Of a stretch of 64,000 nucleotides of DNA, positions 3,673-58,995 are shown in pieces. A program made the position numbers and the translations under genes. The first letter of the stretch is position 1. Every line of letters begins with the position of its first letter. Below the pieces are notes generated by a model. The model was not told the origin of the DNA. It did no database searches and saw nothing but the letters and a program-made list of their open reading frames with translations. This DNA is from Tomocerus qinae (Eukaryota > Arthropoda > Collembola > Entomobryomorpha > Tomoceridae): contig CM034546.1 of NCBI GenBank assembly GCA_020055645.1, forward strand, positions 44,578,001 to 44,642,000. Direction: 5' to 3'.

Positions 3673-4880
3673 TAGGCTGACCATAATTTGATGAAGGGAA
3701 AACGGGACCCTATATACAGTATTGTATTTAGAAGTCGATATCGAAGGGTAATCCCATTAAACCATATGTATATTAGGAATATCTTCCTAAAGATACTTTT
3801 GCTGATCCTAATTTTATAATACTTTTGCCCAACATTTTAAAAAATGACACAATCGCGCAAAGAGCGATAATTTTAAGCTATTTTTGCCGTAAACAACCAT
3901 AAAAGACAATTATAATCGCGCGTAGCGCGATAATTTTAACCTATTTTTACCGTAAACAACCATAAAAGACAATTATAATCGCGCGTAGCGCGATAATTTT
4001 AACCTATTTTTGCCGTAAACAACCATAAAAGACAATTTTAATCGCGCGAAGTGCGATAATTTTAACCTATTTTTGCCGTTAACAACCATAAAAGACAATT
4101 ATAATCGCTCGTAGCGCGATAATTTTAACCTATTTTTGCCGTAAACAACCATAAAAGACAATTATAATCGCGCGTAGCGCGATAATTTTAACCTATTTTT
4201 GCCGTAAACAACCATAAAAGACAATTTTAATCGCGCGAAGTGCGATAATTTTAACCTATTTTTGCCGTTAACAACCATAAAAGACAATTATAATCGCTCG
4301 TAGCGCGATAATTTTAACCTATTTTTGCCGTAAACAACCATAAAAGACAATTATAATCGCGCGTAGCGCGATAATTTTAACCTATTTTTGCCGTAACCAA
4401 CCATAAAAGACAATTTTAATCGCGCGAAGTGCGATAATTTTAAGCTATTTTTGCCGTTAACAACCATAAAAGAAAATAGATGGTTAACTTTAAGTTTTGT
4501 TTGGCAATATTGGTGTACAATTTCCTCATTATCGTACGATGAGCATGAGCGTTTATTTTAAGGTCCTTTTCCCTAAAACGGCTTAAAGTTCCCAAACTAT
4601 TGTGCCAACCATGAAAATGTTAGGTCCTTTTGCTGTGAAAAGCCAATATATATAGTAGATTTCTCAAGTTGTACCATTAATCGTGCAAAAAATTTTGTTA
4701 CTTTTAGTGAAAATTTTCCTTTTTCGTTCGTAGTAGCCATTAAATTAGGAATCCCTCAATTTTTTCTAAAAAACGGGTCGCGTTTCTGAAAACGGGACAG
4801 TTTCGGGACGCCGGGACAGTGACAGGACAGGCACTAAAAACGGGACGATCCCGTTACAAACGGGACGGATGGTCAGCCTA
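3673..4880. mobile_element. hAT-like MITE family B nested in family A
   Basis: Ends are TAGGCTGACCAT and its complement ATGGTCAGCCTA. It is flanked by the 8-bp duplication GGGTGGGC (3665-3672 and 4881-4888), and the intact sibling of family A at 14.1 kb shows the uninterrupted sequence. The subterminal parts are rich in CGGGAC/GTCCCG. It carries the 63-bp tandem array. No transposase is seen. Confidence 0.85.
3852..4478. repeat. Minisatellite, 63-bp unit with 189-bp higher-order period
   Basis: About ten head-to-tail units of 63 bp, each holding the near-palindrome ATCGCGCGTAGCGCGAT followed by an AT-rich stretch and AACAACCATAAAAGACAA. Variants (GTAGCGCG, GAAGTGCG, CTCGTAGC; GTAAAC versus GTTAAC) recur every third unit, so the array has expanded as trimers of 189 bp. 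It lies inside the nested hAT-like element. Confidence 0.9.
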
Positions 4881-10975: not shown

Positions 10976-12233
10976 ATGATTAACTTTAAATTGTTTTTTT
11001 TTGTTTCTGAGATGCAAGTTGTGGAGGAGTAATAGTAGCAGAAAATGGAGTTATTAATTACAATTTCGACGCATCTTTAAATGACTCAATGAAATGCGTA
11101 TGGACCATTCAAGACAAAAATAAGACAAAGATGGCATTCCATTTGGTTAGTGACAACGATTGTGAATTGGAAAGTACAATTACATTGATGTCGGTTCGAC
11201 CTTTTACTCCACCCACCACCCCGGCGACACCAATCGACTATAAAACTGAAATGTAAATAATTGAGATTATAGTATTTTATTATTATCGTACTAGATACGG
11301 TAAAAGCCATTTTATTACGTTACAGATCAGTATTATTAAGTCATTACTACAATCTATTTGATTATTAACCAAAAAGCGAAAGGAATTAAATACAGTTTTT
11401 TAATCTTTATTATTCTAGGAAATTGTTGTAATTTAGATTATTTAACGCATAGTGTAGTGTAAAAGTAGCAATGTATGATTCAAAAAAGTATTGATAGATA
11501 GATGGTAGCGTTAATCAATTCCTATATTTCATATACAGGAAAAAATCATAGTTCATTTCCGACCACCCCGTATATGTTTATGTATTTAAATAGATTGCCC
11601 GCAGACGGAGAAGAACACATCGTGGACAGTCCTCTAGTGTTTGTCATTCTCTCGCTTCAGGCATCTGAACTACCGTTGAACTGTAGTAATGGTGGTTTTC
11701 AATTAAGATTTGAAGGCAGAGGACCTCCAATGAGTGGAAGAACATTCACCAACTTCCATTTTGAAGGCAGCGAAGGTCAAGTATCCTACCCAACAACGTC
11801 CCATCACTACAGTTCTAAAGAAACTGTGTCATTCGTTATCACTTCAATTCAGTTTCCAATTTATATTAATTTGAATTTTTTGGACACCGATCCTTATGAC
11901 AGATTGACCTTTTTTACCGAAAAAGATCGGAGAACTAATGAAATGGTGATGATAAACAATACAGTAATTCATGACGACAAATATGCGTAAGTGCACTTTG
12001 GACTGATCTACATTTGATTTTTAACCGACATAAAATGAGTTGTGTTTTTTGGCTAATATATCTAAATGTACATCTCTTTGTTCTATATACATACTTATAG
12101 GTACTCTGGATTTCTTGATGATGTGAATTTCGATATCAGGCCATTACATAATGTTCACATTTTCATTGCCATTTTCCAATCAGATGGAAGTCACGAGTAT
12201 TATGGATTCCAGTTTTCATGGAAAAGAATTTAA

Positions 12234-20659: not shown

Positions 20660-22364
20660 GTAATATTAAGCAGACGATGTATATTTATAGATACCGTATG
20701 GGGAAGTACAGACAACTCACACGGCCTTTATTCTGGCTAAATAGGTTGGGTTTTGTGTTTACTTACCCTTACAACCTATTATCTCTATATTATAATCGTA
20801 GACTTGATAAAGCAATAAATTTACCTATCTATATATCTATGTATGTATGTTTGTATGTATGTCTGGTAGGGTGATCGTAAAAGCAAAATGTCATGTTTGG
20901 AAACGAGTGTTGAAAGTGTAATAAGCTGCTGCCCTAGCAGCATACCAAAATTCAAATAGAATTGTTTCATAATATGTACATTTGTACAATGCAACTGTAA
21001 GAAGTGTCAACTGCGTGAAAAGTGTTTTTTACTGTACTGTTTACTTTTTGCACTTTCAATTCATTTTTTGCTGATTTTTGACGAAAACACGAGTTACCAA
21101 ATTCTCTTCTGTCTGCTATCAAAAGGAATACTCATCTTTCTGATCTGAAAATTAGCCACTGTGAATCTATACCTACACATTGTCCTCAAAACTGAAACTG
21201 CTGCTGATTTAAATGAATATAAGGCTCATTCATTGTGATTAGTAAGTAAGTGATTAACCCTTCAGAGCCTACGGTATCATATAAGATATACAACTAAATT
21301 CTGTTATCACTCTCACATTGAGGCAATGCAAAATAGTAAGTTTACGCGGGTAGTACAAGACACTTTCTAGATATATACCAAAAATTTCAGATTTGAGTTT
21401 TGACTTCCCGTTTCCGAGATATCGGATTTCGGAATTCGGACCCACGAAAAAATATGTCAGCGCGGAGCAGGTAAATTTTTGAAAATTTTTTAAATACTTT
21501 TAAAAAATTTTGCACTTTAATTTTTTGTTTTATTTCAGTACAAAATTGGTTGAAGATTGCCATAAAAATGTCGTGTTTGTCCCAATGTCATACTCCTCAG
21601 TTCCGGAAGTGAAAATCCACTTCCGTATCATATATGGTACGGTAGGAATGACCCGATAATAATTATTTCACAATTACTTGCTCTAGGGTCCTAATGGTGG
21701 CTGAATTAGTTGACATGCTCGAAAATGATGATTTTCCAGACATAGATGGAATTTACATTGAACTCCTGACCCAAATGTGGACTCTCAAGATTCTGCTGAT
21801 GAAGATAAAGGGGACTTATTGACAACTTGTCCAGTAACCAGCTGAGAGCCATGGGACACTTCAAATTGAACAGATATACTGATGATCCGGTTGATGATAT
21901 AATGAAGATGTTGATGACCTATAATCAACAGTCACTGTACCACAGCCAGTTGTCACTGTTTCGCCTAGCTCCTCCTCCAAAACACCAGGGAAAATCCCCC
22001 CAGCTAAAAAAGCCGCACAAACTCCAGCAAAACACCCAAGAAACCTCAGAATCCAAAAATATCACAAAAAGGAATTACAACGGCTGCCTTGCCTTCTGTC
22101 TGGAATGTAAATGACTTGTCCCAAATTAGCTCTGGGGTTACTTTCCCCCCTCAGACTACAGTTCGTATAATAATCTAAGTGCTGTTCAATTATTCGAACA
22201 GTTTTTTGATTCAGAGGTAATGGTACTCATCAAAACCGAACCCAAGAGTTACTCTGTCTTCAAAATGGAATAGGACCCCTACATAACTACTGAAGATATC
22301 AAAGTATTGATAGCAATTATGCTTACTATATCTGGTTATAATTGTTTACCTGGCAAATGATGAT

Positions 22365-22820
22365 GTGAAGAAGTTGCCATTTCAATTTTTTGTGGACAAT
22401 TTATTCAACAGCATTAGTTTACTATCCGAAATGAAAATCCGAAGTTATGGGTGTACTGCAACTCTACCAAAAGATCGAATACCCAAAGAATGTTCATTGG
22501 GGGGTAGTACTAATCTGATAAAAACTGAAAGAGGTGCCTACTATTACCAATGTGATGCAAAAGGAGGAAACATCATTGTATCTTGGAAGGATAACGCTGC
22601 CGTAAATTTGGCTTCAAATAGTTTTGGAGTAATCCCAATTTCCAAAGCCTCAAGATATTCTCAAGCATCGAAATCTAAAATTCAGGTACCTCGACCTTTT
22701 CTCATCGGTGAATATAATAAATATATGGGAGGCACAGATATGATGGATCAAATTTTTGGTAGATACCGGCTTGGAGTAAGAAGCAAAAATGATGGTGGTC
22801 ACTATTTCCTTGGCTTATAG
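22365..22820 (+). pseudogene. piggyBac transposase fragment
   Basis: A 151-codon open stretch inside the piggyBac element. It shows VDNLFNS near the start and PRPFLIGEYNKYMGGTDMMD further on, both features of the catalytic region of PGBD-type transposases. The N-terminal region (weakly visible at 21700-22110) and the C-terminal region (22840-23145) lie in other frames, so it is a remnant. Residues of the DDD triad cannot all be placed in one frame. Confidence 0.8.
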
Positions 22821-23337: not shown

Positions 23338-24825
23338 ATCGCTAATATGTGTTGTTCTGTAATTGCATCATAAAACTTACATTTTCCCAAAAGTCAATTA
23401 AATAATTAAATATCTCCACCCTAGGGTATCATATATGATACGGGTAGTATATTCGGTACCCGTGAATTTAAAAATTTAAAACTCGGTTGGCACACTAATA
23501 AAATTCTGATATTACCACCCTGAGATTTTGGTTACAATAGCATGGTTACTTTTTTCTGGGCTCTGAAGGGTTAAACGTATTATGGTAAAATTTTAATTTA
23601 ATACACTTTTAATAAGATTTGGAAAATGAGGTTTCATGTTGCTTATTTGAAACCAATTGTTAATTTTAGCTTATAATAATCTCCTTTGTATTTGAATAAT
23701 ATTTTCTGCATTTAAAAGTCGAAGTGTATTTTCTGTTCAATCAAGAAGATTCAATGTGTTTACCATTGGCTAATGACTTTCCAACAAATGGTCAAATAAT
23801 TATAAATATTATATAATAATTACATATAATAATTATAATTTTATATATATTGTCCAACTCCAACATGGTTGGACAATAAATAATGTTACCATATTATTGT
23901 AAAACATTGGGTAACAGCAAAAGGAAAAGTCACAATATTACTGATTACCGAGTAAAAAGCGAAGATCTTATACACATAAATATATTATTATATATAAAGA
24001 TACACCAATAATTTGTGATTACGGTTACATGTAGGATTTTGAATTTAATAGTTGTGCTTGATTCATTTCTTTGCTGGGTTCACTAGTAGTTACTAAAAGC
24101 CAATTTATCCTGAATTAAGCACAGTACTGAAAAGATACATCGCACATATGCTACTACATTTTATGTACATAATTTAATGAACAGACTAAAATGTCAACAG
24201 AGCAGAAAAAACTGGAAACACCTTCTGTCAACATCATGTTTTGTATACACCTAAAATGCAGGGACAGATTACAACAGACATGTACATGTGATGACAAAGG
24301 GGGATTTTTAAAAAAATGTTGACGAAAAGGTGTTAACAAAAAAAGTGTAGCACTGTGTATGTACTCGTGGTTGAAAAAATCTAAACACATTTTTAGATAA
24401 TTGGTCATTGCATTGATTTTTTTTTGTAGCGGTCCGTTGCGGTAGTGGGACCTTATTTTACTGCGACAATGGAAATTGCATAACAAATGTAAATTTGTGT
24501 AACGGAAATAATGATTGCGGAGATAACAGTGACGAAGATCCTAGACGCTGCGGTAAATAATTATCCTTTATTATGACATTATTAATTTTGATAAGAAATA
24601 ACATACAGCTACAGCAATTGAAAACTAAACGGTCATAAATAATTGTTGAATATTCTTAAATAATATTATTAATCTGTAGACTCCAGCAGTAAGACTTGCT
24701 CTTTCCAATATGTCCATGAAGAAAAAGTTGATTGCGGTTGGCCTGGAATTCATTCCCGCATCTGTAATTTTAGAGGGTGTTGTCATGAAACCACTGCCAA
24801 TGGTTCTAGTTGTTTTTTTAAGGGG

Positions 24826-24866
24826 CACATTGTGCGGAATCAATTGACATGCGGCCCTTTGTCAAA
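24826..24866. repeat. Transib terminal inverted repeat, downstream end
   Basis: 41 bases matching the complement of 28725-28765 at about 36 positions. It begins with the heptamer-like CACATTG, the expected recognition and cleavage border for a RAG1-like transposase. Confidence 0.9.
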
Positions 24867-25040
24867 ATGAGACTTATTTCATTGGCGATGTCATTTTTAA
24901 GTTAACTTTAGTACAATTATTTTATTTAGACCTTTAATTCAGGGATTTTTACAAATTTGATTATAAATTATTTTTGCCCACCCGAGGGTGATTACACAAT
25001 AGCATAATATTATAAAAATAATCGTTTTAAGACATACGTT

Positions 25041-27362
25041 TTAAATTTCTGGGGGTATTTCTTCGCTTTCTAATATGCAATCCAAAAATACACCATCTCC
25101 CAAACCATCTTCAATTGCCTCTAGGTTGTCAAAAAGGGTTCTACTAGTACTAGGCATAGCTACTGAATTAAGTTGTAGTTCCATGACTTCATATAGCGGT
25201 TCTTTTAATAAATCTTTAACTTCCTGGGGAAGAGGTAATAGTTTGCTCTGCTTTCTTCTTTCTGTGATGGAAAAACTTGAAATGAACGGATCTGATGTTT
25301 CATGCGCACGATGGAACATATCTGTCAGTGTATTTTCTCTGCTGGTCAATCTGGAATGGCGAAGCCTGTCCATTCTATATAGCTTATTCCTAGCTTCGGC
25401 GCTTTCTTCGCTCATCATACCCAGTGGCAGCTCACTTTCGTTCATAATCTCTTCACCATGGATTAATATTTTATGAAGTGTAGCTGGCAGGAAAAACCAA
25501 TTATATTTTTCATCTGTTACATATCTAACAAAATACTTTTTACAAAAATCCCCAAATTTTTTTGGGTCAACGGGAGACTGGCATGCTAGACATATTAAAA
25601 TTGTTCTTAAATCATGAATTATCCACTCATCAATGCCTAATACAGAGGCAAAGGTTTTATAGTCAGAAAAAGCCCGTCTTGCACAATTTCCATCGTTAGA
25701 TGTCCCATTTCCACTGTTGTCCGGGTAATCCACGCGAAGGCTCATTTTCTCCCATAATTCCTTTTGAATTTTTCCTTTTTTGGAATTCAAAAGTTCTCGT
25801 TTTTCTTTTTTCACTGCCCAGCATTTCAGGCCTTCCACATTTCGATACGCTAAGTGGAGGCAAAATTCAAAAGAGCGAAGCCAACAATGTAACGGGCTAA
25901 TACCGTATTGCAAGTTCTCGACAGGGGCATTAAATGTCCCATTAGCAAAATTTTTCAATACATTAAATTGTTTAGGAGTTGCCTTGCAAATTGGACAAGA
26001 CATAGAAGATTTGTTTTTGGTTATGAAATTTAAAATTTTTCCATCAATCATAGTCATTCTTACTTTGAATTTAATGAATATATTGTGATCTCCGTTAAAA
26101 TTGATAGAATATTCGTATTCTTCAAGTTCTTCTATCTGCCTTTTCAAATCATCAATTTTTAATGTCACAACATCTTCTGTCTCTTTAGCAAATTCTAACT
26201 CGACAGGTCTACAAAATCTTGTCGATTGGGGAGTGGAATTGTTCCAATACAAAGCATCTGAATTGCTAATTAACCGTAATGGTATCATTGTCGTAGCAAA
26301 AAGACTTTTATCACTGGGATCGGCTAACGTTGTAGCAAATGGTTGGTTAAATCTGGAGTGACCGCTACTTCCATCCATACCACAAACACAATGTAAAACG
26401 CCATGGCTATCTTTCCAGCCTCGTTTATCATGCTCTGACGAAATAACGTCTTTTTGTAACTTAATTAGTCTTTCAGCTGTATGTTCTAATAAATTTTTTA
26501 ACGGCACTGACGCCTTAATGTCATTCACTTTTGTCAATGGCACATGACACTTCTTCTTAGCCTCAAAAAGTCGATCATAAGAAGGGTAAATGTTGGATCC
26601 TAATGCTTTAGCGCTCCTTCTTAACGTTTTGTACTGCTGTACTGTTAAATTTAGGTCCAGAAACAATGCCAACGCTTCCTCGGGACTATATGCTCTTGGA
26701 TCTTTAACTACGAGTTTAAATTTTTTATTTATTGTTTCTGCTCGCGTTGGACTTTTAGTTGTTTCTAAAATAGTTTTACCAATTTCAGAATATCCTCGTT
26801 TTTTTACTTCCTTGGCTGCAGCTTTTAATATCAAAGGTGTTGAAATACATTTCAATTCTTCCGACATTTTCATAGTCTCTTTTCTTTGTGTTCTCTTTGA
26901 CATTTCTCTAAAGGGCTTTTTACAGCGAATCTTTGGTACATTTAAAGGGTTACATTTAACCGAAGGAGAAAAAACTGTATATTTGTCCAGAACAAGATTT
27001 TCTGTGTCCCATCGTTTGACAGTTTTATGATTCTTCCATTTGTCTTCTGTTCTTTTTAACCTTTGCCACAATGCGCTTGCTTTACTTCTAAAGGTGAACA
27101 AATATTTTTTTAAGGCAGGTAACTTGGCATCAACAATTGGAACACTACTACATATTGTCGACAAGCACCTTTTCATGTTTTCTTGATCGGTTTCTCTTTT
27201 CTTCAATATGTCTGCAAATAAACGCTTGGTAAATATTTTGTTGTAGTCCTTATCAGCAGCGCTGTCTGTCATTTTTTCCATTTCCGACAGAGGTTTAGAG
27301 TGATAAAGAACTTCATGAGAGCCATGGTTATGCATACCCGATGTATTTGGCGAAAATTCCAT
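25041..27362 (-). CDS. Transib transposase, RAG1-like
   Basis: A single uninterrupted 773-residue frame filling most of the Transib element. Transib transposases share ancestry with the RAG1 recombinase core and cut DNA with a DDE site. Landmarks: a first acidic residue in CGMDGSSGHSRFNQ (D330); the family motif WNNSTPQSTRFCRP (about 373-386); a second in MTMIDGKI (D440); a zinc-binding pair CPIC (456-459); the GNCARRAF block (559-566), matching the GNFARKL region of RAG1; and SEESAEARNK (651-660), where E656 is the likely third catalytic residue. The basic N-terminal 200 residues may bind the terminal repeats. The frame has no lesions. The ATG lies 1.4 kb inside the upstream end, leaving room for a promoter and a possible 5' non-coding exon. 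Family assignment is from motif recall; activity is inferred only from the open frame and clean ends. Confidence 0.92.
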   Translation of the reverse strand: MEFSPNTSGMHNHGSHEVLYHSKPLSEMEKMTDSAADKDYNKIFTKRLFADILKKRETDQENMKRCLSTICSSVPIVDAKLPALKKYLFTFRSKASALWQRLKRTEDKWKNHKTVKRWDTENLVLDKYTVFSPSVKCNPLNVPKIRCKKPFREMSKRTQRKETMKMSEELKCISTPLILKAAAKEVKKRGYSEIGKTILETTKSPTRAETINKKFKLVVKDPRAYSPEEALALFLDLNLTVQQYKTLRRSAKALGSNIYPSYDRLFEAKKKCHVPLTKVNDIKASVPLKNLLEHTAERLIKLQKDVISSEHDKRGWKDSHGVLHCVCGMDGSSGHSRFNQPFATTLADPSDKSLFATTMIPLRLISNSDALYWNNSTPQSTRFCRPVELEFAKETEDVVTLKIDDLKRQIEELEEYEYSINFNGDHNIFIKFKVRMTMIDGKILNFITKNKSSMSCPICKATPKQFNVLKNFANGTFNAPVENLQYGISPLHCWLRSFEFCLHLAYRNVEGLKCWAVKKEKRELLNSKKGKIQKELWEKMSLRVDYPDNSGNGTSNDGNCARRAFSDYKTFASVLGIDEWIIHDLRTILICLACQSPVDPKKFGDFCKKYFVRYVTDEKYNWFFLPATLHKILIHGEEIMNESELPLGMMSEESAEARNKLYRMDRLRHSRLTSRENTLTDMFHRAHETSDPFISSFSITERRKQSKLLPLPQEVKDLLKEPLYEVMELQLNSVAMPSTSRTLFDNLEAIEDGLGDGVFLDCILESEEIPPEI

Positions 27363-28724
27363 TATTTATTCGCGAGGAAATATTTTGCTATTTGTCTAAA
27401 TAATATTATTTCAATTCATTAGTTGCTATATGTCTACAACGTGTTTTATTTTAGCTGCATGTCTTTTATCTCATTTTCATCTACAATAGACCAATTTACT
27501 CGTTTCCATTGGCTTTTATGGCCACACCCAATTTAATTTTATTTTAAGGCTGACACTCAAGTGGCACGCGTTTTCAATTTAAAAAAATATTTTGAAATAC
27601 CTTAATAAAATAGACTTCCTAATAGTGCCATTTAATCAAATGCCTAATCTAATGATTCCTTAACCTCCAATCCAAACATAATACATGCTCCAGTTATAAA
27701 AACATTCTTAACATCTGCAACCAGCTAAAATTGATTTTAGCACTGTATTTGACTAGCCTATAATAAATTTTAGCCAGTTGTAATCCACTTTTTAAGAATT
27801 GACTTCTCAAACATATGTAAGGTAAATCCTAGTAATTACTTATATTCAACAAGCGAAAAAGAATAACAATATATTTCCAATTTACAAATTTTTGACATAT
27901 TAAACATAACAAATATAAAATAAATTGTACTTACCAATTTTTAACCGTTATTACAATTTTTGAAAATTCACTATATTTTCTGTTTCTCAAATGATTTTCA
28001 CAATAACTTTGCTCTGACTCATGATTACTGTTTAACTCCTTGGTTTTGAATGTCATGGAAATTTTAAATGAATGTCAGCTGAACTGTATTTACTGCTAAT
28101 AACCTCCGATTAATTAGTGAATTATGAAGCATATGGAGAGGACTAGCACTTCCAGATGCTACAGGTAGGTGGCATTCAAGTCCACTTATATTCTTCATTT
28201 ATTCGAAGTATTTCTTTCCTTCATACATAGCCGATTTAAACTTAGTTTTTTTGATCTAAATGGAAAATTTCAATTCAAATTCGAAGATTCCATGTTATGT
28301 TAGAACCCTGGAGATATCGTTGGATTTCCTTAATAACTTACAAAACTTATTTTAGGTCGCTGTGAAACATAATAATTTACTTATGTCAAACGTTATTTAT
28401 GATCCTCTCTCGGGCGGGTTCACAACATTTTTGTAACTTTTGAAGTAGCCGCTAGTGGCACCTGAAGTTTTTTTCAAAAAATTCTATCAAAAATTAGAAT
28501 TTTTTCAAGACTAGACACAATGGTGGGTAGTGGTGGGGTTTTATGTTATGTTAAATTTAAAAATTTGTACTGAACTACATTGGTTTAACTATTTCTTCAA
28601 CGTATTTAAAAATTGCAATATGAAGGTGAAACTTTTTGGAGTAATATATTATCTAGTTTAGGGTATTTTCATCCAATTAAAAGTGAAAAATTCAAGATCT
28701 GCGCGAAAAAATTTTATTACAAAA
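27363..28724. other. Transib 5' non-coding region
   Basis: AT-rich sequence between the transposase ATG and the upstream inverted repeat. No second gene is supported. It presumably contains the transposase promoter on the minus strand, but no box is clear enough to place. Confidence 0.5.
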
Positions 28725-28889
28725 TTTGGCAAAGGGCCGCCTGTTTATTGATTCCGCACAGTGTGAGGGGGTATGAATATATTTTTAAAGGATACACAAA
28801 TTAAAAAAACATTAGCTTCATGTTTTTATTACCCGAGTCGAAGCATTTTTAACGGTAACGAACTGAAACGTTCTACAATACTACTATTA

Positions 28890-30802: not shown

Positions 30803-32766
30803 GTTGCAGTGACAGTGACTATTTCCGTTGTAATAACGGACGATGCGTAAGATATACCCATATCTGTAACGGTAATGATGATTGCGGAGACCACAGTGAT
30901 GAAGATCCCAGGCGTTGCGGTACTTAAAATAAACCAAATTACTATGACGATTTAACATATTGACACTTGTGTTCTATTGAAATGTATTACTATTATGTAG
31001 GATCTGACGTTACGTGCTTCTATTCTGAATTTGTTGGAGAAAGGGTTGAATGTGGCTGGCCTGGAATACATCACGACACCTGTACAGAGAGACGATGTTG
31101 TTCAGATACCACAAAAAATGGCTACCACTGCTATTTACAAACGGTAAATGATCCTGTTAGTTGGCTATTCCCAACATAGTTTTCTCAATTAGATTTCCGA
31201 TATTGTTGTACATGAATTCAGTTTGGATATTAATCAAAGGAAACTAAAATATAACACGTCAAAAATATTTTCGTTTTTGGGAACCGCGTTTTTGAATTTA
31301 ATTTTGATTGATGATACCTGTAAGCCAAAATTATTTAACATGGAAATATTTTGCTGAACATATTAGAGTTTGTCAAGATTTAATAGAACGCTAAAACATT
31401 GGGACACTAATGGAATGATACCAGCAGTCATTAAGAGTAATTATTAAATTCATTATCATCTGCTCAAATTGAACTGATGACTAATAATTAACTTAAAATT
31501 TTTTCTTGCTTTTGAGATGGAAGTTGTGGAGGAGTAATAGAAGCAGAAAACGGAGTTATTAATTACAGTTTCGATGCATCTTTAAATTACTCAACCAAAT
31601 GCGTATGGACCATTCAAGACAAAAATAAGAAAACAAAGATGGCATTCCATTTAGTTAACGACGACGATTGCGAATTGGAAAGTACAATAACATTGATGTC
31701 GGTTCGACCTTATACTCCACTAACCAACCCGGCGACACCAATCGACTATAAAACTGAAATGTAAATAATTGAGATTATAGAATAATATTTTATTTTTATC
31801 GTACTAGATACGGTAAGAGCCATTTTAATAGATTACAGATATCACTATTTTTATAACATTAAGTCCCGAATACAATCTACTTGAATTTTTAACAAAAAAG
31901 CGAAAGGAATTAAATATAGTTTTTTAATCTTTATTGTTCTAGGAAATTGTAATTTAACGCATAATGTAGTGTAAAAGAGGTAATGTGTTATTCAAAAAAG
32001 TATTGATAGATAGATGGTTTGGTGCGTTATAATCAATTTCTATATTTCATATACAAGAAAAAAAATCATATTTCATTTCCGACCACCCTGTATATATGTT
32101 TAAGTATTTAAATAGATTGGGCGCAGACGGAGAAGAACACATCGTGGACGGTCCTCTTGTGTTTGTCCTTTTTTCATTTCAGGCATCTGAACTACCTATG
32201 AACTGTAGTAACGGTGGTTTTCAATTAAGATTTGAAGGCAGAGGAAACACAAAGAGTGAAAGAAGATTCTCCAACTTCCATTTTGAAGGCAGTGAAGGTC
32301 AAGCATCCTACCCAACATGGTCTGGAACCTACCGTTTTGAGGAAACTGTTTCATTCGTCATCACTTCCATGCAGTTCCCCATTTACCTGAACTTTAATTA
32401 TATGAAAACCGAGTATATATATGACAGATTGACCATTTTTGCCGATAAAGATCGGAGAACTAATGAAATGGTGATGATCAACAAGACAACAGATGAACAC
32501 GACATGTATGCGTAAGTGCACTTTGGGTTGATCTACATATGATGTTTAATGGACATAAAATGAGCTGTGTTTATTGGCTAATATATCTAAATGTACATTT
32601 CTTTGTTCTATGGACATATACTTATAGGTACGCTGGATATCTTACTCAAGCTGATGTGAATTTTGATATCAGGCCACTACATAACGTTCACATTTTCATT
32701 GCCATTTTCCAATCAGATACAAGTGCCCAGTATTCTGGATTTAAGTTTTCATGGAAAAAAAGTTAA

Positions 32767-43300: not shown

Positions 43301-46300
43301 ACTAGCCAAGATACACATTTCTGTAGATATAAGCGAGCCAAAGGTACAACAGTTATTAACCTTTGGAATGTTTGGTCAGGTAAATGTGTTACTACCCTGC
43401 TATTACAATATATAAAGACTCATAATAGTATACAAATTGATATTATAATATTACTTTACGTACCCAATGCATGTCAACCACCAATGCAATTGATGGAGGG
43501 AGTCTGGTTGAACTGCGATAATATTTCGCGTTTTCATGTACATGTGCCATGCTGGTAGCTTATCAGTTATTACAAATGAGCTTCAATGAAGACTCCGGAT
43601 GACACCAATCTGCCTACAATTTGCGTATCTCCAGCACACTTTCAAGGCCAATGCTTCTTTTTCTCTTTTCCACACACCATTTTTTCACTCACTTCACTGC
43701 ACAAGGTAAACCCGAAAAAACCGAATTTTTTGTGGAACGACTGACCTTTAGTCGGCGATTTTAATATATTCAGGAACGTCTTTACGCGAGGATCACTTTA
43801 GTGTCAAATTTACCCCTATAGGTACATTTTCAACGGGTCAAAAATCAGTTTTTGGCGGAGTGGCACTGCACATGTACTTCCTCGTTCACGACTTCAACCA
43901 GACTCACAATACTACTATTATATGCCTACATAATTGACTATATTATAACCCTATAGGTACTTGCTGTGGCGATAGATAATATGGAATTCGCCAACGCTAC
44001 AGGTAATTTACCACTTTTCGTTTTAGCTTCCCGTGACGAGCTTATAGAACCGCACAGTCTACTTAATCTCCGTCTGTCCGTACTCACGATAACGTTCGAA
44101 TGTATTGACGGATATTGACTAAACTTGGCAAAGCAATGCCTAAGAATTATCGACGATTTATTTAGAGGAAATCAATCCATTTGTTGCTGAGATGCTCCGA
44201 AATTGATCCATTTAGCATTAATGTTCCATTTTATTGGCAAAACCTTTTTCGATTTCTTATTCATTTAAATAGTTACTCTATTTATATTTTCTATTGATAA
44301 TTTTAAAAATCAATGTACTTTAAATTAAAGTTTCTTTTAAATTTAATAATCAATAATATGTTTTGATTTTCTTTTATTTTCATATTCAATAATGAAAAAT
44401 TTTCAATACTAATATGTTTTATACTTCTTTTGATTTTCATATTTTTAAGGCACTTGTAGGTAATTTAACTTGAATAAACGGTCAAAAAATCAGCGGTAAA
44501 AATTAAAATAACTAAATAATGCTGTTAAGGCATTTCTCTAAATAAATATTCCTTATTTGAAAACAAATATTGACATTAGTAAAAATTAGCCATAGTTTGG
44601 TTTAATGAATCTTTGTTTCACAAGGTTGCAGTCACAGTGACTATTTCCGTTGTAATAACGGACGATGCGTAAGATATACCCATATCTGTAACGGTAATGA
44701 TGATTGCGGAGACCACAGTGATGAAGATCCCAGGCGTTGCGGTACTTAAAATAAACCAAATTACTATGACGATTTAACATATTATTGACACTTGTGTTCT
44801 ATTGAAATGTATTACTATTATGTAGGATCTGACGTTACGTGCTTCTATTCTGAATTTGTTGGAGAAAGGGTTGAATGTGGCTGGCCTGGAATACATCGCG
44901 ACACTTGTACAAAGAGACGATGTTGTTCAGATACCACAAAAGATGGTTACCAATGCTATTTACAAACGGTAAATGATCCTGTTAGCTGGCAATTCCCAAT
45001 TAAGTTGTACATGAATTCAGTATGGATATTAATTAAAGGAAACTAAAATATAACACGTCAAAAATATTTTCACGTTTTTGGAAACCACTTTTTTGAATTT
45101 AATTTTGATTGATGATACCTGTAAGCCAAAATTATTTAACATGGAAATATTTTGCTGAACATATTAGAGTTTGTCAAGATTAAATAGAACGCTAAAACAT
45201 TGGGACACTAATGGAATGATACCAGCAGCCATTAAGAGTAATTATTAAATTCATTATCATCTGCTCAAATTGAACTGATGATTAATAATTAACTTAAAAT
45301 TTTTTTCTTGTTTTTGAGATGGAAGTTGTGGAGGAGTAATAGAAGCAGAAAACGGAGTTATTAATTACAGTTTCGATGCATCTTTAAATTACTCAACCAA
45401 ATGCGTATGGACCATTCAAGACAAAAATAAGAAAACAAAGATGGCATTCCATTTAGTTAACGACGACGATTGCGAATTGGAAAGTACAATAACATTGATG
45501 TCGGTTAGACCTTTTACTCCACCCACCGTCCCTGGAACACCAATCGACTATAAAACTGAAATGTAAATAATTGAGATTATAGAATAATATTTTATTATTA
45601 TCGTACTAGATACGGTAAGAGCCATTTTAATAGATTACAGATCAGTATTTTTATAACATTAAGTCCCGAATACAATCTACTTGAATTATTAACAAAAAAG
45701 CGAAAGGAATTAAATATAGTTTTTTAATCTTTATTGTTCTAGGAAATTGTAATTTAACGCAATTATAATGTACTGTAAAAGGGGTAATGTGTTATTCATA
45801 AAAGTATTGATAGATAGATGGTGCGTTAATCAATTCCTATTTCATATACAGGAAAAAAAATCATAGTTCATTTCCGACCACCCTGTATATGTTTATGTAT
45901 TTAAATAGATTGCCCGCAGACGGAGAAGAACACATCGTGGACGGTCCTCTTGTGTTTGTCCTTTTTTCATTTCAGGCATCTGAACTACCTATGAACTGTA
46001 GTAACGGTGGTTTTCAATTAAGATTTGAAGGCAGAGGAAACACAAAGAGTGAAAGAAGATTCTCCAACTTCCATTTTGAAGGCAGTGAAGGTCAAGCATC
46101 CTACCCAACATGGTCTGGAACCTACCGTTTTGAGGAAACTGTTTCATTCGTCATCACTTCCATGCAGTTCCCCATTTACCTGAACTTTAATCATATGGAC
46201 ACCGAGTATATATATGACAGATTGACCATTTTTGCCGATAAAGATCGGAGAACTAATGAAATGGTGATGATCATCAAGACAACAGATGAACCCGACATAT

Positions 46301-46561
46301 ATGCGTAAGTGCACTTTGGGCTGATCTACATATGATTTTTAATGGACATAAAATGAGCTGATTAAAATGTTTATTGGCTAATATATCTAAATGTACATTT
46401 CTTTGTTCTATGGACATGCTTATAGGTACGCTGGATTGGCATATACTAAAGTGAATTTTGATATCAGGCCACTTCATAACGTTCACATTTTCATTGCCAT
46501 TTTCCAATCAGATAGTAGGGGCGAGTATTCTGGATTTAAGTTTTCATGGAAAAGAAGTTAA
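37393..46561 (+). CDS. LDLa/trefoil/CUB secreted protein, copy 3, intact model
   Basis: Exons 37393-37487, 38417-38501, 38608-38703, 39607-39715, 39996-40112, 40209-40354, 40488-40506, 40616-40732, 41530-41646, 42220-42342, 42466-42611, 43957-44002, 44625-44741, 44826-44968, 45168-45237, 45319-45562, 45909-46304 and 46426-46561 join in phase to 773 codons plus stop. Order: signal peptide ([20 protein letters not shown]), a heptad-rich segment (about 33-128) likely to oligomerise, LDLa1, trefoil 1, LDLa2-4, trefoil 2, LDLa5, trefoil 3, two CUB domains (about 516-773). LDLa modules carry the calcium motif DCGDNSDE; trefoil 2 and 3 keep all six cysteines ([18 protein letters not shown]). Domain exons mostly have phase 1 borders, as in shuffled extracellular modules. 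Oddities: trefoil 1 lacks its first cysteine and uses a GC donor; LDLa2 lacks a core cysteine; the LDLa3 acceptor is inside a MITE end. It is likely secreted, binding carbohydrate or protein; the physiological role is unknown. Confidence 0.85.
37620..38395. repeat. Dispersed repeat in intron 1 of copy 3
   Basis: Counterpart of 17109-17880 with few differences, including a 5-bp duplication GGGAT in the GTGGGGAGTGGG stretch and TTAGGTTAGGTTAGG near 38040. No gene seen. Confidence 0.6.
39800..39866. repeat. Interstitial CCTAA-rich repeat
   Basis: Three or so irregular units of AACCTAACCTAACTTAT replace about 40 bp present at the same place in copy 2. The core CCTAA is the complement of the TTAGG telomere repeat common in arthropods, although here it is mixed with CTTAT. 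Shorter forms are near 2500, 17520 and 38040. Confidence 0.65.
40964..41533. mobile_element. MITE at the LDLa3 exon border of copy 3
   Basis: About 570 bp with ends CACTCTTA and TAAGAGTG, absent from copies 1 and 2. The interior has several inverted AACATTATTTTAATGT-like segments. The exact target duplication is unclear (borders uncertain by about 3 bp). It separates the old acceptor (TTTAG at about 40957) from the exon. The superfamily is not certain; CACT ends recall CACTA-type elements. Confidence 0.75.
41666..41772. repeat. 47-bp-arm hairpin MITE, copy 3
   Basis: Same hairpin as 20553-20659, again 47 + 13 + 47 bases, with one loop difference. It is inherited with the duplicated block. 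Confidence 0.85.
42731..43905 (-). mobile_element. Retroposon (LINE-like remnant), copy 3
   Basis: Counterpart of 28890-30082, flanked by the same ACAATACTACTATTA (42716-42730 and 43906-43920). Minus-strand tail of TATC repeats. No reverse transcriptase. Confidence 0.75.
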
Positions 46562-49296: not shown

Positions 49297-49852
49297 CCCA
49301 AGCAAAATTAACAGTTCACCATCCACAGTTCAATATCAACACCTGAGCAGAACTTTCAATAAATCCAGAGAGTTTTTCAAAAAAATCGAGTAAGTCATTT
49401 ATAACTTTAAATTATTTTAAATATTGAAAAAAGAATTTTGAGCCCTTAATTAAAACTGATTCGGAAGAATAAAACTTGCTATAATTTACTGGATCTTGCA
49501 ATTGACTTAATTATATTGCCAAACAGATCGCATATACTTAAAATTATTCAGCTGCTCATCTTCTTTTTAGTATTAAAGATCTAGGAAACGAAAATATAAT
49601 ATGAAAGTTGTTTGAAATTTCGAAATATTTTGATTGATATAAATTCTATTATTGTCACTTTCCCTCATTTCACTACTTTAATCTATACGCCAAAATGCCA
49701 GGTATCTAATTTTTAAAATTGCGTATAGTAGTAGGTATATATTTTATTGTTTCGTCAATTTTAAAAATCCCAACTGTAGGCTTAAAATCTTCGAATTTTT
49801 CCAAAATCTTCTAATGTAATTGACGAATAGCGAATGTTGAAATTTCAGGAAA

Positions 49853-50098
49853 ATGAAAGTCATTATTGTCTGTATTCTCGTTCTCGCTTCTGTCATCTTT
49901 GTCACTGCCGAGCCTGGATCATTTGGAAGTTCATGCACCTACTCCAACGATCAAGCACTTGACGATGCGGCCTGCGTCAGGGCCAAAAATAACATGTTGT
50001 GCTCAAAAGACAAAGTGTGTGTCTGTCGTGACAAATACTTGGGAAGCGGTCCTTCTTACCATGTTGCTGCAGACCAATTGTCGTGCATTCAGGACTAA
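49853..50098 (+). CDS. Small secreted six-cysteine peptide, intact
   Basis: An 81-residue preprotein. Residues 1 to about 19 form a signal peptide (MKVIIVCILVLASVIFVTAE); the mature part has six cysteines spaced C-x12-C-x8-C-x5-C-x-C-x19-C. The CxC pair following a C-x5 spacing recalls EB-type or EGF-like mini-modules, but I cannot name a family. Start chosen because it follows a TTTCAGGAAA acceptor and opens the signal peptide; the coding sequence is one exon after a UTR intron. AATAAATAAT about 50 bases after the stop is a likely polyadenylation signal. It is the intact member of a local cluster in which most copies are broken. A defence, venom-like or salivary role is possible but not shown. 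Confidence 0.85.
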   Translation: MKVIIVCILVLASVIFVTAEPGSFGSSCTYSNDQALDDAACVRAKNNMLCSKDKVCVCRDKYLGSGPSYHVAADQLSCIQD

Positions 50099-51237: not shown

Positions 51238-51462
51238 TTAGTCGGCAATGCAAGACAATTTGTCTTCAGCAATGTGGAATTTTGGAAGGCATTCGCAAAG
51301 TTTTTCCTTTGTGCAAACCATGTTGTTCTTTACTCCGACACAGGCAACATCATCCTTATCGGCATCACCACTGAATTCGCATTTCTCTCCGAATTTAGCT
51401 GGCTCAGCTGTGACGTAGAGGACAGCGACGAGGACGAGAACGCAAACAAAGACGGCCTTCAT
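51238..51462 (-). CDS. Small secreted six-cysteine peptide, diverged intact paralog
   Basis: A 74-residue preprotein with signal peptide MKAVFVCVLVLVAVLYVTAE. Cysteine spacing is C-x12-C-x8-C-x5-C-x-C-x12-C: identical to the 81-residue paralog except for a seven-residue shorter last loop. It ends DKLSC followed by three residues, like its relative. The mature part is rich in lysine and aspartate. A 5' UTR intron with a TTTCAG acceptor and a TATA promoter at 51655 match the family layout. It is the most distant member in sequence and sits at the edge of the cluster, so it may be the older copy. Confidence 0.85.
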   Translation of the reverse strand: MKAVFVCVLVLVAVLYVTAEPAKFGEKCEFSGDADKDDVACVGVKNNMVCTKEKLCECLPKFHIAEDKLSCIAD

Positions 51463-51654
51463 TTTTCTGAAATTTCAAAATTCAAAATTGAAGCTCAAAT
51501 ACTTTTTTAATAATATTTATTTTAACTATATTAATAAACATTAAGAGAGTGAAGGAAATGACTTACACAGTTGGTGGGCTCTGACAGGTAACTTTGGTAT
51601 TATTGTTGAGATGAGATGTTGAACTGTGGATGCTGGACTTAGACTTTGCTTGGG

Positions 51655-53073: not shown

Positions 53074-56000
53074 TCACTTCCGAGATGGTCCTGAACGCTG
53101 CTGCTGCTGATTGCGTTGAGCACCGTCATCAGCTGGAGCAGTAAAAACGTATTGAGCAGAATTACCCTTTTTGATACAACGACGCACTTCTGATCGTCCG
53201 TTGACGAAATTCGTTTGGAAAAGCACATTGGCATTAGTATACATTCCTGAAAATTGTAAAACATAATTCAAATAAAGTAAAAATAATTCATGCAATAAAT
53301 AATATAGCATTATTTTTATCTCACCGTCTTTTAGGGACACACAAATGAATTGAGTCTCCTTAAATCGCTCTCGAATGAGACAACCAATATTCTGGGTGTG
53401 GTTCATGTCCAAAGCTGCATCTATTTCGTCCAGAACATAAAAAGGCGCTGGGCTATACATGCAGAGAGACAAAACCAAGGCTAGAGCCACAAGAGATCTT
53501 TGGCCACCACTCAGCTCGGTTAGCGATTCTTTCCATACACCACCAAGGCACACATGAATCTAAAATATATAATTTATTAATTTTTATTATTGTTTAAATT
53601 TTATAACTGTAGGTTTAATTTGAATTTCATAATTGTAATTATTTTTTAATTTAAATTTCATTATAGTAATTCTTGTTTAATTTAAATTTCATAATTCTAA
53701 TTATTGTTCTAAATTTAAATTTCGTAATTGAATTAATGTTTCAATTTTAATTACGGCATAAATTTTATAATTTTAATTACCGCTTAAATTTTATAATTTT
53801 AATTACGGCTTAAATTTTATAATTTTAATTACTGCTTAAATTTTATAATTGTAAATATTGCTTTTTAAAATAGTAGTTATTGCTTTTCAGAATTTTAGTC
53901 ATTGTTAAAATTTTATAATTCCAATTATTGTTTATATAATTTTAATTATTGCTTAAATTTTATATTTTTATATATTGTTTAAATTTATAATTGCAATTAT
54001 TGTTTCTATAATTTTAATTATTGCTTTAATTTATAATTTTAATTGTTGTTTAGTTTTCATAATTTTAATTGTTACGTACATTTAGACCAGCTGTGAGGTC
54101 ATGCGGATTGACAGGAACAAGACGAGCGTGGGATTCGGGCAACAGTGTACTCATCATGCTATCAAATTCTGTGTTGATTCGGTCGTAAGCAGCAGAGACA
54201 AGATTCATCTACCCAAATACAAATTGTAATACATTGGCAATTACATTAGATTGATTTATATTTTTTTAATTACTTTGTGCTTGTCCAACTGCTTTACGGC
54301 TTCTTGCAATTTGTCTCTGTTTGAAGAAACTTGCTTCAATTTCTTTTCCGCTTCTGTAATTTTCATTTTAGTGATGTTCATCTTTTCAGCGCCTTCAAAG
54401 TCAAGCCGTTCTTTCATCGTAATCATTCGAGAGTCAAGAAAATCTAACTCTTCTTTCAATTTCTACAAAAATTGGATATAATTAAATATAATTGAATTAT
54501 TACAAACGTAATTATTTTTTTTATTTCTACCTTTGCACTTTCATTTCTTCCGCTAGGAGGAAGATTAGTAAAGTCAATTTCCGGGTTGGATGCTTCTAAA
54601 TCCTCCAATCGCTTTTTTATGGCTAATTTAAAATACCACAATTAAAAAAGATTATTTTTTATGTAGTAAGTTACTATGCAATAAAATATTAACAAGGGAT
54701 AACATTACCATTCACCGTTGTGCTCAATTCCTTTCTGTCATTATCTCTTCGCATTTTGCTCATTTCTGTCTCATGTAACTTTTCTTTGGCCTTAGCGATT
54801 GCATTTTCTAATCTTTGTTTCTCTTGCTGCCATTTTTTATTGCCACCAATTTCTGCATCGTAAATTTGTTGTTTTGAGTTAAAAAGTTCCTTTGCAGCTT
54901 CAAAGGCTTCCGTTTTCGATTGTGTATCTTTTAAGTATTCATCAAGCTCACTCATTGCTTTATCAACATCCTGAGAAAAAATTCCAATTAATTTCTTCAA
55001 AAATTGTTGTTTGAATAATTTTGATTTACCTTTTGACAATCCAGAATTAATTGTTCACGGGCTTTAATGTCAACATCCACATTAGCATAAACAGCTTGAC
55101 GGGCATCGTAATTCTTTTGTGCAGTTTCCAAAGCTTTTTCATATTTTTTGATATTTTGCTTATTTTCCTCATAATGCTTTGCTCGTATTGTGTCCAAATT
55201 GTCAACTTTGGATTTTAGCTTGGCAGCCTCTTTTTCTAATATTTGTTTCTCCTTTTTCATGGCATTATTTTGCTCCGAAATTGTTTCTGCAATGAAAAGT
55301 TTTAATTAATTAGTATATTAAAAATTTATAATAACGTCTAAAAAGAGTTACCATTTTTCTTTTTGATCTCGGCAATTTCATTCATCGCAACAAACCGGGG
55401 AGTTTGATTTCTCAAATTGGTAGCAGTCTCCAATTCGTAAGACACTTTTCGAAAGGTGAAGGAAAATTCTTGTTCCCTTTTGTTAGTAAAATAAAACTAT
55501 TAAAATATCGTCCAACAAAATTATTTGATGATAAGTTAATACTTACTCTTTCAAGATTTCTTGTTCATGCTGAGCATTGGCGATCTCTTCGTTTAAAACT
55601 CGAACATCATCGGCTGCTTTAATCCAAGCTCCACCGTTTTTTCTAGCACCTCCCTGCATAATTCCATCGGGGTCGACAGAATCTCCATTTTTAGCAATAG
55701 AAAAGAAATGGTGACCGAAAGCAACTTGCTAAAAAATAATTCTCAATGATATTTACAATATAATAAAGCTACATTTTAATAATATACTAATTAATAAATA
55801 ATTACCCGGGCATCTGCAGAAGTTTCTACTAAAACTTTGTGACCGATGTGACTTTGAACTAAGTCATGATATTTGGGATCATATTCGACTAAATCCAATA
55901 GTCTAGTAGCAACACCTTTTCCTAATTTCGCGTCCAACATTTTCTGTGTAATGTTACTTTGTGAGTTTGACTTGAAGACATCCATTGGATGAATTGTCAT

Positions 56001-58995
56001 TCGATTTGGCAGAACTGAAATCGCAACCATTCATTTTAATAATTTATATTTTTAAGAAAATAGTAATTAATTGTGCCAAAAAATACAAATTGAGTTACCT
56101 CCTGGCTCTACTAAATATTTGGCTACTGCCGCTTCGTCGACGACCACATGAAGAAGAAATCCTTTTGCTGCTACTTCAAACGCAGTCCCCCAAGTTTCAA
56201 TATCTTTAAATTTAATGAGATTGTAAACCTGTCCTCGTACTTTGGATGGGTCAGCCCTTCTAGGATTCTCCCTATGATGACATTCAATTTTATTATTCTG
56301 TACTTTGAACAAATACTACATGAAATCAATTTTTAGAAAAATAGAAATTGATCTAGTGAATTATTTAAGTTTCTACTAGCAGCCGACAACACTAATAAAA
56401 GACAATGTAATTAATTATAGGTAAATATGTTAATAACTTGAAATTAATGTATACCAAAACATTAAATTATTATTATATTTAAAATGAATGAAATTACTTG
56501 TAATAAAAATTGAGTTCTGGAAACTGTCGGAAAATGGCCTGCTTTCTTTTCTCCAGCTGATTCAATTTTTGATTCAATTCGGAAAATAATCTTTGCCAGT
56601 CCTTATTGGTTTCCATGTCGAAATTTCGGTTAGCAGCCTCCCTCTTAAAATGTTCCATTTTCTCCACTGCAGCATTGAACCGATTTTCGATGTCTTTGTG
56701 AGCTGGAGCTTTTCTCAACTGATTTTCAGCCGCTGATAATCTTTCGGCAAGTCTCTTTTGGTCCATTTCATTCATCTCAATGTTTGTTTGCAGACCCAAG
56801 ACCTTTTCATCCACATCTGGACACAAATAATTGCCAATCAAATAAAACCTCAATTTCAAATTTAAAAAAATTCTGAATCAATGTAAATATTTAATAAATT
56901 AAAAAATAAATATTTAAATACCTTGCTGTTGTTTTAGTGCATTCATAGCGTTTCCATACTCGTCAACAATAGCTCCCATTTTCAATTCACTTTCCCTGTT
57001 TGAATAAAATAATTAAATTTACTACTAGATAAAATAGTGTAAATATTGCAACTGAAATGCCACTTACAATTTTCTGGCGTCAGTTAAGTTTTTCTCAGCT
57101 GTTTCCACTTCCATTTTGACTTTATTAAATTCCTCGATCAAGGACTTCCCTTTATTTTGGAATTGGTCCATTTGTTTCTTTTCGTCGTCTCGGGCAGCTT
57201 CCTTTTCTTTGACATTTTCACGTGCTTCCTGCTCGTTTTGCTTTGCTGAACTTAATTCCGCCTCCGACAATAACATTTTCTTTTTGTAAACGTTCATTTC
57301 CTTTTCTGCGGCAGATATTTTTGCATCAAAGTTTGTTCCTTCATTTTGCATTTCATTTTGTCTAGCTTGACATTCTTTGATTTCGTCAGCGTAATTCTTA
57401 TGCTTGGCTTCATCTGCACTGTCGGCGGCTAAAACTTTTTCAAGTGCCTTGCTACGACTTTCCAGCTCAACATTCTTTTCTTTGTACACGGCAACATGAT
57501 AAGCTCTTTTCTTCTGTGTATGTTCGTTGGTTAGTAAATTGTACTCTTCAATATCAGCCACTGCCTTCTTTTGTTTATTCAAGGCTGGGAAGATTATCTC
57601 GGTCATTGTCTATTATTTAAAATTAAAATTCACATTTGTTACAAAATTTAAAAACAAAACCCTACTTTCAATTTTAAATTAGATATTGTAATTAGCTAAC
57701 AACTTTTTATTATCTTTTTGTCATATTAGTCCACGTTTTGTACATTCAAGTTATTGAATATGTTTACACCAATACGATATATTTTTTTTCGATATTAACT
57801 AGTTAAATGTTTATTAAGTTTTTCCAATATTCTACAATTGTATTAATTATATACCTCATTGATGGTATCGACTTGTCGTTCTTTGTCGTTTAATTCTTTT
57901 TGGGTTTTGTCTCTTTTGGCTTGATAGGCTGTTGCTCCGACAGTTTCTTCAATCATGAACAAAAGTTCCTTTGGTTTCATGTTGACCACTTTCGTTATTT
58001 TTCCTTGCATGATGACAAAGTTTGGCTGGTTAATATTGAGTTGAACAGAGCCCAGCATATCCGCAATGTCTTTCTTCGAAGACAATAGTCCATTTAAAAA
58101 GTACTGGAGAAATACATAATTTTTAAATACATGTCCCATTGAATAATACTCTTATTTTTATAAAAATAAATTTTTTGATTACTTTGCACAACTCTGCATT
58201 CTCTACAGTTCGAGAGACGATAATTTCGTCATATTTATCATAGCCTACTGGACATTTCCCATTTCTTTTGTCGGTGTTATCAAACACAATGGAAACAGAA
58301 GCTCGGAGAAGACCCGCTCCTTTGTAAATCAAATCTCCTAAGCAAGTAGCACGCACCTGGATTTATACACAATTTAAAATTCTCATGTATTTTTTCAAAA
58401 CCAAAGTCATTTCAGAAAAATGTGTCTTACGGTAGCCAATGAGTTGAGACCCAAAACAAAGCAAATAGCGTCAAGAATATTCGATTTTCCAGACCCGTTA
58501 TATCCGGTAATGGCATTAAAATGTTTGTCAAACGGTCCAACATTTGTCCTGTCTCGGTAGGACTGTAAATTAAATCACAATCACATTATTTTAGTATATT
58601 CACGACCAACATTTAACATCAACATTTTGGATGCAATCAGAAACTAAAAATCATGAAATCAGCTCAATCAGCTGACAATTTGGAGTTTAATTGATATCAC
58701 TACTAAAATGTGATATCTAAATGTCAATAGATGTTTCCCACAATTGGTGACCGGTCACTAAATTAACATGAATAGGTATTGAAATGATGACTACAGTACC
58801 TGCCAGTGTTATCCTGGAATTGTGGGAAACGTCTATTAATTTTAATAGTGTTGTTAGTTTTTCATTTCCCATTATCAATTATACTCACAGCTAATAGCTA
58901 AAACAATGATTGGCCTATTTGTCCTAATTATTAGAAAGATTTTCAATTGTAAAACATACCTTAAACCCGTCAAGAATCACGTGCTTTATGAACAT
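53074..58995 (-). CDS. SMC2: Structural maintenance of chromosomes protein 2 (condensin)
   Basis: Eighteen exons join in phase to 1183 codons: 58960-58995, 58431-58562, 58183-58356, 57855-58103, 57068-57609, 56922-56995, 56498-56816, 56099-56271, 55806-56014, 55547-55728, 55352-55476, 55030-55286, 54709-54970, 54531-54622, 54274-54462, 54080-54208, 53325-53559 and 53074-53246. The N-terminus [20 protein letters not shown] and Walker [10 protein letters not shown] (32-40) are SMC2-like. [18 protein letters not shown] follows. Two long coiled coils flank a hinge with [14 protein letters not shown]. The C-terminal ATPase half has the signature [14 protein letters not shown] (from about 1064) and Walker [13 protein letters not shown] (about 1088-1099). 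With SMC4 it forms the ATPase core of condensin, which compacts mitotic chromosomes. Length agrees with the family. The exon beginning at 55476 uses the acceptor AAAAG, the only one that keeps frame. No lesion seen. Confidence 0.95.
53575..54075. repeat. Degenerate AT-rich tandem repeat in an SMC2 intron
   Basis: About fifteen irregular units of roughly 25-30 bases built on TAAATTTTATAATTTTAATTA fill the intron between the exons at 54080 and 53559. Unit length and sequence drift steadily. No coding content. Confidence 0.75.
58726..58837. mobile_element. Small MITE in SMC2 intron 1
   Basis: About 110 bp bounded by inverted ATAGATGTTTCCCACAATT and AATTGTGGGAAACGTCTAT (one mismatch in 19). Flanking bases TCA and TAA do not give a clear duplication. 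No coding content. Confidence 0.6.

What the first reader, a model, noticed from the sequence alone, without database searches (positions are those of the whole stretch)
24826..28765. Complete Transib element with an open RAG1-like transposase and heptamer-like ends
The frame of 773 codons is unbroken, three acidic residues sit in the right motif order (D330, D440, E656), the ends match over about 41 bp and start CACAYTG like the RAG heptamer, and the 5-bp AGGGG duplication is perfect. Transib is the accepted relative of RAG1, so an apparently intact copy in this lineage is useful for comparing recombinase evolution.
Basis: partly seen in the sequence, partly recalled or inferred. Interest (0 to 1): 0.75.

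Follow-up and report, generated by a model that had tools for sequence, protein, structure and literature searches.

The report
Intact Transib transposon in probable springtail
This is a complete cut-and-paste jumping gene of the well-known Transib family, relatives of the enzyme that assembles our antibody genes; it looks intact and is a tidy new example rather than a new kind of thing.

Summary

The host genome (334 Mb, probably a springtail) showed this full-length copy once. It also showed two sister families with open transposase frames (76% and 62% identical) and nine short deletion derivatives, 96-100% alike, with similar ends. dN/dS between the window copy and its nearest sister is 0.15, so the gene evolved under constraint.

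Verdict: correct; a new member of a known kind. Loose end: 25 of 29 transposase-coding loci lie on one contig holding 42% of the genome; no other transposon superfamily could be run as a control.

The parts
24821..24825 (.). left target-site duplication AGGGG
24826..24866 (+). left terminal inverted repeat, heptamer CACATTG at 24826-24832
24921..24926 (-). AATAAA poly(A)-signal-like hexamer about 115 nt past the transposase stop
   Evidence: consensus match only
25041..27362 (-). transposase gene, 773 aa, single open frame
26697..26927 (-). residues 146-222: N-terminal stretch collinear with the RAG1 nonamer-binding domain in some structural alignments (weak)
26373..26375 (-). codon of catalytic D330 (= HzTransib D126)
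26043..26045 (-). codon of catalytic D440 (= HzTransib D225)
25395..25397 (-). codon of catalytic E656 (= HzTransib E436)
27363..28724 (.). apparently non-coding part upstream of the transposase; no frame there above 66 codons other than the transposase itself, no RAG2-like frame seen
28725..28765 (-). right terminal inverted repeat, heptamer CACACTG read inward from 28765
28766..28770 (.). right target-site duplication AGGGG

Best explanation
A complete, apparently intact autonomous Transib DNA transposon, HzTransib-like, in an arthropod genome that is probably a springtail's. Shown: ends, 5-bp duplication, open transposase with the Transib fold (predicted) and catalytic triad, purifying selection on the gene, and a set of short deletion derivatives with similar ends. 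Inferred from the known chemistry of HzTransib and RAG1: a transposase dimer binds both ends, nicks at the CACANTG heptamer, forms hairpins on the flanking DNA, excises the element with blunt ends and joins the ends 5 bp apart into a target, which leaves the 5-bp duplication. The same enzyme is the best candidate found in this genome to have moved the nine short (MITE) copies in trans. Whether this very copy still moves is not shown.
Against: Only one copy aligned over the whole length was found in the genome (40 of 59 candidates scored), so recent movement of this copy is not demonstrated. Its own left and right ends differ at 5 of 41 positions. The MITEs are only 81-85% (left) and 89-91% (right) identical to this copy, so they were not cut from it directly. 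The GRP motif of the nonamer-binding-like region, present in 16 of the 27 aligned rows, is absent here.
Confidence: 0.94

Rival explanations
1. A recently immobilised Transib: structurally complete but no longer moving, preserved by chance since its last insertion.
For: Single full-length copy found; 5 mismatches between its ends; the nearest near-full-length relatives in the genome are only 76% identical in protein and 78% in DNA.
Against: No stop or frameshift in 773 codons and a perfect TSD; dN/dS 0.15 along the lineage, although that value mostly reflects time before this insertion. Sister family L018/L019 was recently mobile: 98.9% and 99.3% identity over its two longest aligned blocks, at different sites.
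Confidence: 0.45
2. A RAGL/ProtoRAG-type transposon (RAG1-like plus RAG2-like) that lost or hides a RAG2-like gene.
For: Shared RAG1 core fold and heptamer-like ends.
Against: No other frame above 66 codons in the remaining 1.4 kb. BbRAG1L is only a marginal single-sequence match (E=0.0012) against 1.8e-76 for HzTransib.
Confidence: 0.01
3. A domesticated host gene derived from Transib.
For: Purifying selection on the frame.
Against: Intact TIRs and TSD flank the gene; it belongs to a multi-locus, partly decayed family in the same genome.
Confidence: 0.03

Closest known systems
HzTransib (Helicoverpa zea; PDB 6pqn, 6pqr, 6pqx, 6pqy)
   Same: Same predicted transposase fold over 475 residues, same DDE triad, similar size (3,518 bp in PMC1852546, passage seen), 5-bp TSD with inverted ends.
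   Different: 34% identity over the structural alignment; HzTransib is 489 aa as first described (PMC1852546), and the match begins at residue 224 here and 7 of the chain, so this protein has about 220 extra N-terminal residues; different target sequence (GCTCG there, AGGGG here).
   Same: Collinear relatives, most with the N-terminal extension, with conserved catalytic residues.
   Different: 28-44% identity; the three own-genome families form one clade (100/100 support) apart from the 24 other rows of the tree, namely 23 of the 26 proteins and HzTransib.
RAG1 (vertebrate) and RAG1L of ProtoRAG/RAGL transposons
   Same: Catalytic core fold, DDE, C and H pairs taken as zinc ligands (recalled assignment; residues conserved here), heptamer CACANTG, 5-bp TSD.
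   Different: No RAG2-like frame seen, 17% identity to mouse RAG1, long near-symmetric TIR instead of 12/23 spacers; D-to-H spacing 52 against 83 in BbeRAG1L (PMC7204232 residue numbers), as expected if the RAG2-binding insertion is missing.

Membership tests
Transib superfamily | RAG1-core-like transposase | tested here: met
Transib superfamily | DDE catalytic triad at the homologous positions | tested here: met
   Alignment to HzTransib D126/D225/E436; conserved in 27, 27 and 26 of 27 rows, the 27th a gap.
Transib superfamily | TIRs beginning with an RSS-heptamer-like CAC sequence | tested here: met
   CACATTG / CACACTG; sister families CACAGTG.
Transib superfamily | 5-bp target-site duplication | tested here: met
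   AGGGG.
Transib superfamily | single transposase gene without RAG2 | tested here: met
   No other frame above 66 codons in 27363-28765; frames antisense to the transposase (102-146 aa) were not searched for homologs, and spliced genes were not modelled.
Transib superfamily | nick-hairpin cleavage and 5-bp staggered integration | not testable with these tools
   Hairpin cleavage known for HzTransib (PMC6941560 passage); inferred here.
Transib Subgroup II of PMC9435367 | loss of the RAG2-binding helices in the zinc-binding domain; symmetric TIRs allowed | tested here: inconclusive
   D440-H492 spacing 52 against 83 in BbeRAG1L; ungapped symmetric 41-bp TIR. No tree with the paper's own sequences was made.
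RAGL / ProtoRAG | RAG1L and RAG2L gene pair between the TIRs | tested here: not met
   No second frame above 66 codons beside the transposase.

The most novel reading that the evidence does not exclude
The genome carries three recently active or potentially active Transib families whose coding copies are non-randomly concentrated on one chromosome-sized contig (25 of 29 loci on C1, 42% of the genome; binomial P about 1e-6), while short non-coding relatives are not: 4 of 9 of the 578-bp MITEs and 4 of the 20 listed copies of a second short family lie on C1. That would point to a chromosome-specific refuge or local re-insertion of a RAG-like transposase in a basal hexapod. The loci are not independent, and no other transposon superfamily could be run as a control, so general density of old coding repeats on C1 could explain it.
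Probability: 0.2. Interest if true: 0.45.

Novelty: new member of a known kind. Interest (0 to 1): 0.27.

Why it matters
It adds a clean, complete Transib with related MITEs and two sister families in one arthropod genome. That gives a natural set for testing which end positions a RAG1-like transposase needs, and for comparing Transibs that keep the N-terminal extension (the region where an NBD equivalent has been reported) with HzTransib. It does not change the accepted picture of RAG origins.

Tried and rejected

dN/dS was obtained for two comparisons only; the script stopped with a division by zero in the third of seven. Controls for the C1 concentration (PF13843, PF05699, PF13358 in the own genome) did not complete. 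Insertion polymorphism, expression and the host species could not be tested. Kapitonov and Jurka 2005 is not held, so its content is recalled.

Literature searches that bear on this element; I saw their listings, not all papers counted. For springtails 1,209 papers held two or more of the terms and 15 were listed; one of those 15 held the word Transib (PMC12693562, one passage seen), in a table row that lumps it with Mirage and P elements. No claim of absence from print is made beyond those listings.

Full report
Observation. The window holds a 3,940-bp element at 24826-28765. Its ends form a 41-bp inverted repeat that matches at 36 of 41 positions; 20,000 shuffles of one end never passed 23 matches. 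Both sides carry AGGGG (24821-24825, 28766-28770). On the minus strand 25041-27362 encodes 773 amino acids without a stop, with an AATAAA-like hexamer about 115 nt past the stop. Beside the transposase nothing in 27363-28765 reads open for more than 66 codons. The window itself has no second copy.

Catalytic residues. HzTransib's published triad is D126, D225, E436 (PMC6941560, passage seen). The residues aligned to D330, D440 and E656 sit 99 and 211 apart in the HzTransib chain, exactly those spacings. D330 and D440 are identical in 27 of 27 aligned rows and E656 in 26 of 27, the other being a gap. E394 and H492 are invariant too; their spacings from D330 and E656 (64 and 164) resemble those of BbeRAG1L's active-site residues D701, E764, D811, H894, E1063 (63 and 169; PMC7204232, passage). 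C456/C459 and H630/H635 would be the zinc ligands (assignment recalled).

Mechanism. From the known biochemistry of RAG1 and HzTransib (passages), the likely cycle is: paired-end binding, nicking at the heptamer, hairpins on the flanks, blunt transposon ends, insertion with a 5-bp stagger. The sequence shows the products expected of it (5-bp duplications, heptamer ends) in four elements of three families: window AGGGG, L018 CCTAG, L040 CATTG and L042 CTCTG (read by eye). Whether this copy is still active is not shown.

Genome. The own-genome search was answered in three calls. The genome is 334.4 Mb in 115 contigs, and the window lies on C1 at 44.58-44.64 Mb. By DNA, the window copy is the only one that aligns over the whole length; two copies are 78% identical over 2.45 kb, one partial copy is 87% identical, and others are 68-70% (a lower bound because 40 of 59 candidates were scored). 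By protein, 52 matches merge into 29 loci at 20 kb. Three give nearly full-length frames without stops: the window copy (774 codons stop to stop), C1:61062521 (782, 76% identical) and C1:126717973 (766, 62%). In the tree these three form one clade (100/100) among 27 rows (three shortened relatives, P0007, P0021 and P0023, left out). The sister L018 has a near-twin, L019/L020, elsewhere on C1, with aligned blocks at 96.6-100% and one stop in its frame; the third family has copies at 96.3-99.5%. These families therefore moved fairly recently.

MITEs. Nine elements of 571-583 bp consist of parts like the left 215 and right 389 bp of this element. They are 96.2-100% alike over 36 pairs and 81-85% / 89-91% identical to the window copy's left and right ends. 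Against L018 the aligned parts of the two MITEs printed (L009, L010; two of nine) are 74-75%, so the window copy is the closest element with an open transposase that was found. Six of nine have perfect 5-bp duplications at the match ends. By eye, L012 and L017 have one extra base at one end beside a 5-bp repeat; L011 lacks the last 6 bp of its right end and shows no duplication; L016, one of the six, lacks its right terminal 7 bp though its duplication is intact.

Selection. Window against L018: 747 codons, dS 0.94, dN 0.14, dN/dS 0.148 (100 bootstraps, 0.115-0.195); window against L019: 0.149. Five further comparisons in that script did not run to the end. The transposase lineage has been kept under constraint for most of the time since those copies parted; with dS near 1 the value is approximate.

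Host. A query of joined SMC2 exon pieces matches Allacma fusca (38%) and Orchesella dallaii (39%) best, over the whole query; among the other 118 of the 120 rows listed, those that align over more than half of the query are 27-33% identical (995 candidates scored). Both are springtails (Orchesella by its genome paper's title; Allacma recalled). The host is therefore probably a springtail, not identified further.

Comparison with what is known. PMC4411706 (passages) says autonomous Transibs are typically present in one or at most a few copies and-bp duplications and RSS-like ends typical; PMC7204232 (passages) says Transib elements hold a single RAG1-like gene. PMC9435367 (whole main text) describes two Transib subgroups and reports an NBD-like domain in both. 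The present element fits that description; its short D440-H492 spacing and symmetric ends suggest Subgroup II, but no tree with that paper's sequences was made.

Against the reading, and open. The GRP motif of the NBD-like part is missing here, while 16 of 27 rows have it. The concentration of coding loci on C1 (25 of 29; C9 1, C3 3; P about 1e-6 if loci were independent) has no control from another superfamily: three control families were asked for and never answered. Short non-coding relatives do not share it: 4 of 9 MITEs and 4 of 20 listed copies of a second short family are on C1. The element is ordinary in kind, well preserved, and worth recording.

Noticed in passing
own genome, contig C1: 25 of 29 Transib-coding loci lie on C1, which holds 42% of the assembly, while 4 of 9 MITEs do. 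Control superfamilies could not be run.
   Followed up: partly
L016 and L011 (MITE copies at C1:16842287 and C4:3778872): Right ends lack the last 7 and 6 bp, the heptamer region; L016 still has a perfect 5-bp duplication directly beside the shortened end.
   Followed up: partly
e.g. C2:53163271, C2:43071334, C4:7571711: A second MITE-like family, 20 copies listed (10 on C2, 4 on C1), shares only short stretches (about positions 266-379, and in some 11-77) with the 578-bp MITE.
   Followed up: no
window 22314-22820: piggyBac-type transposase fragment (DDE_Tnp_1_7, E=8.2e-12; the name piggyBac is recalled for this Pfam family).
   Followed up: no
window 53074-58574, minus strand: Multi-exon SMC2 gene, strongly diverged (38-39% to springtails, about 30% to others).
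   Followed up: partly
window 11502-11990, 32033-32515, 45814-46308: Three similar frames of about 160 aa, a local gene family without any Pfam match at E 0.001.
   Followed up: no
window 3851-4477: Tandem array, 63-bp unit, 10 copies, 93% matches; a genome search with it did not complete.
   Followed up: no
window 49841-50098 (+) and 51238-51474 (-): Two similar short cysteine-rich frames that look secreted by eye, in opposite orientation, no Pfam match.
   Followed up: no
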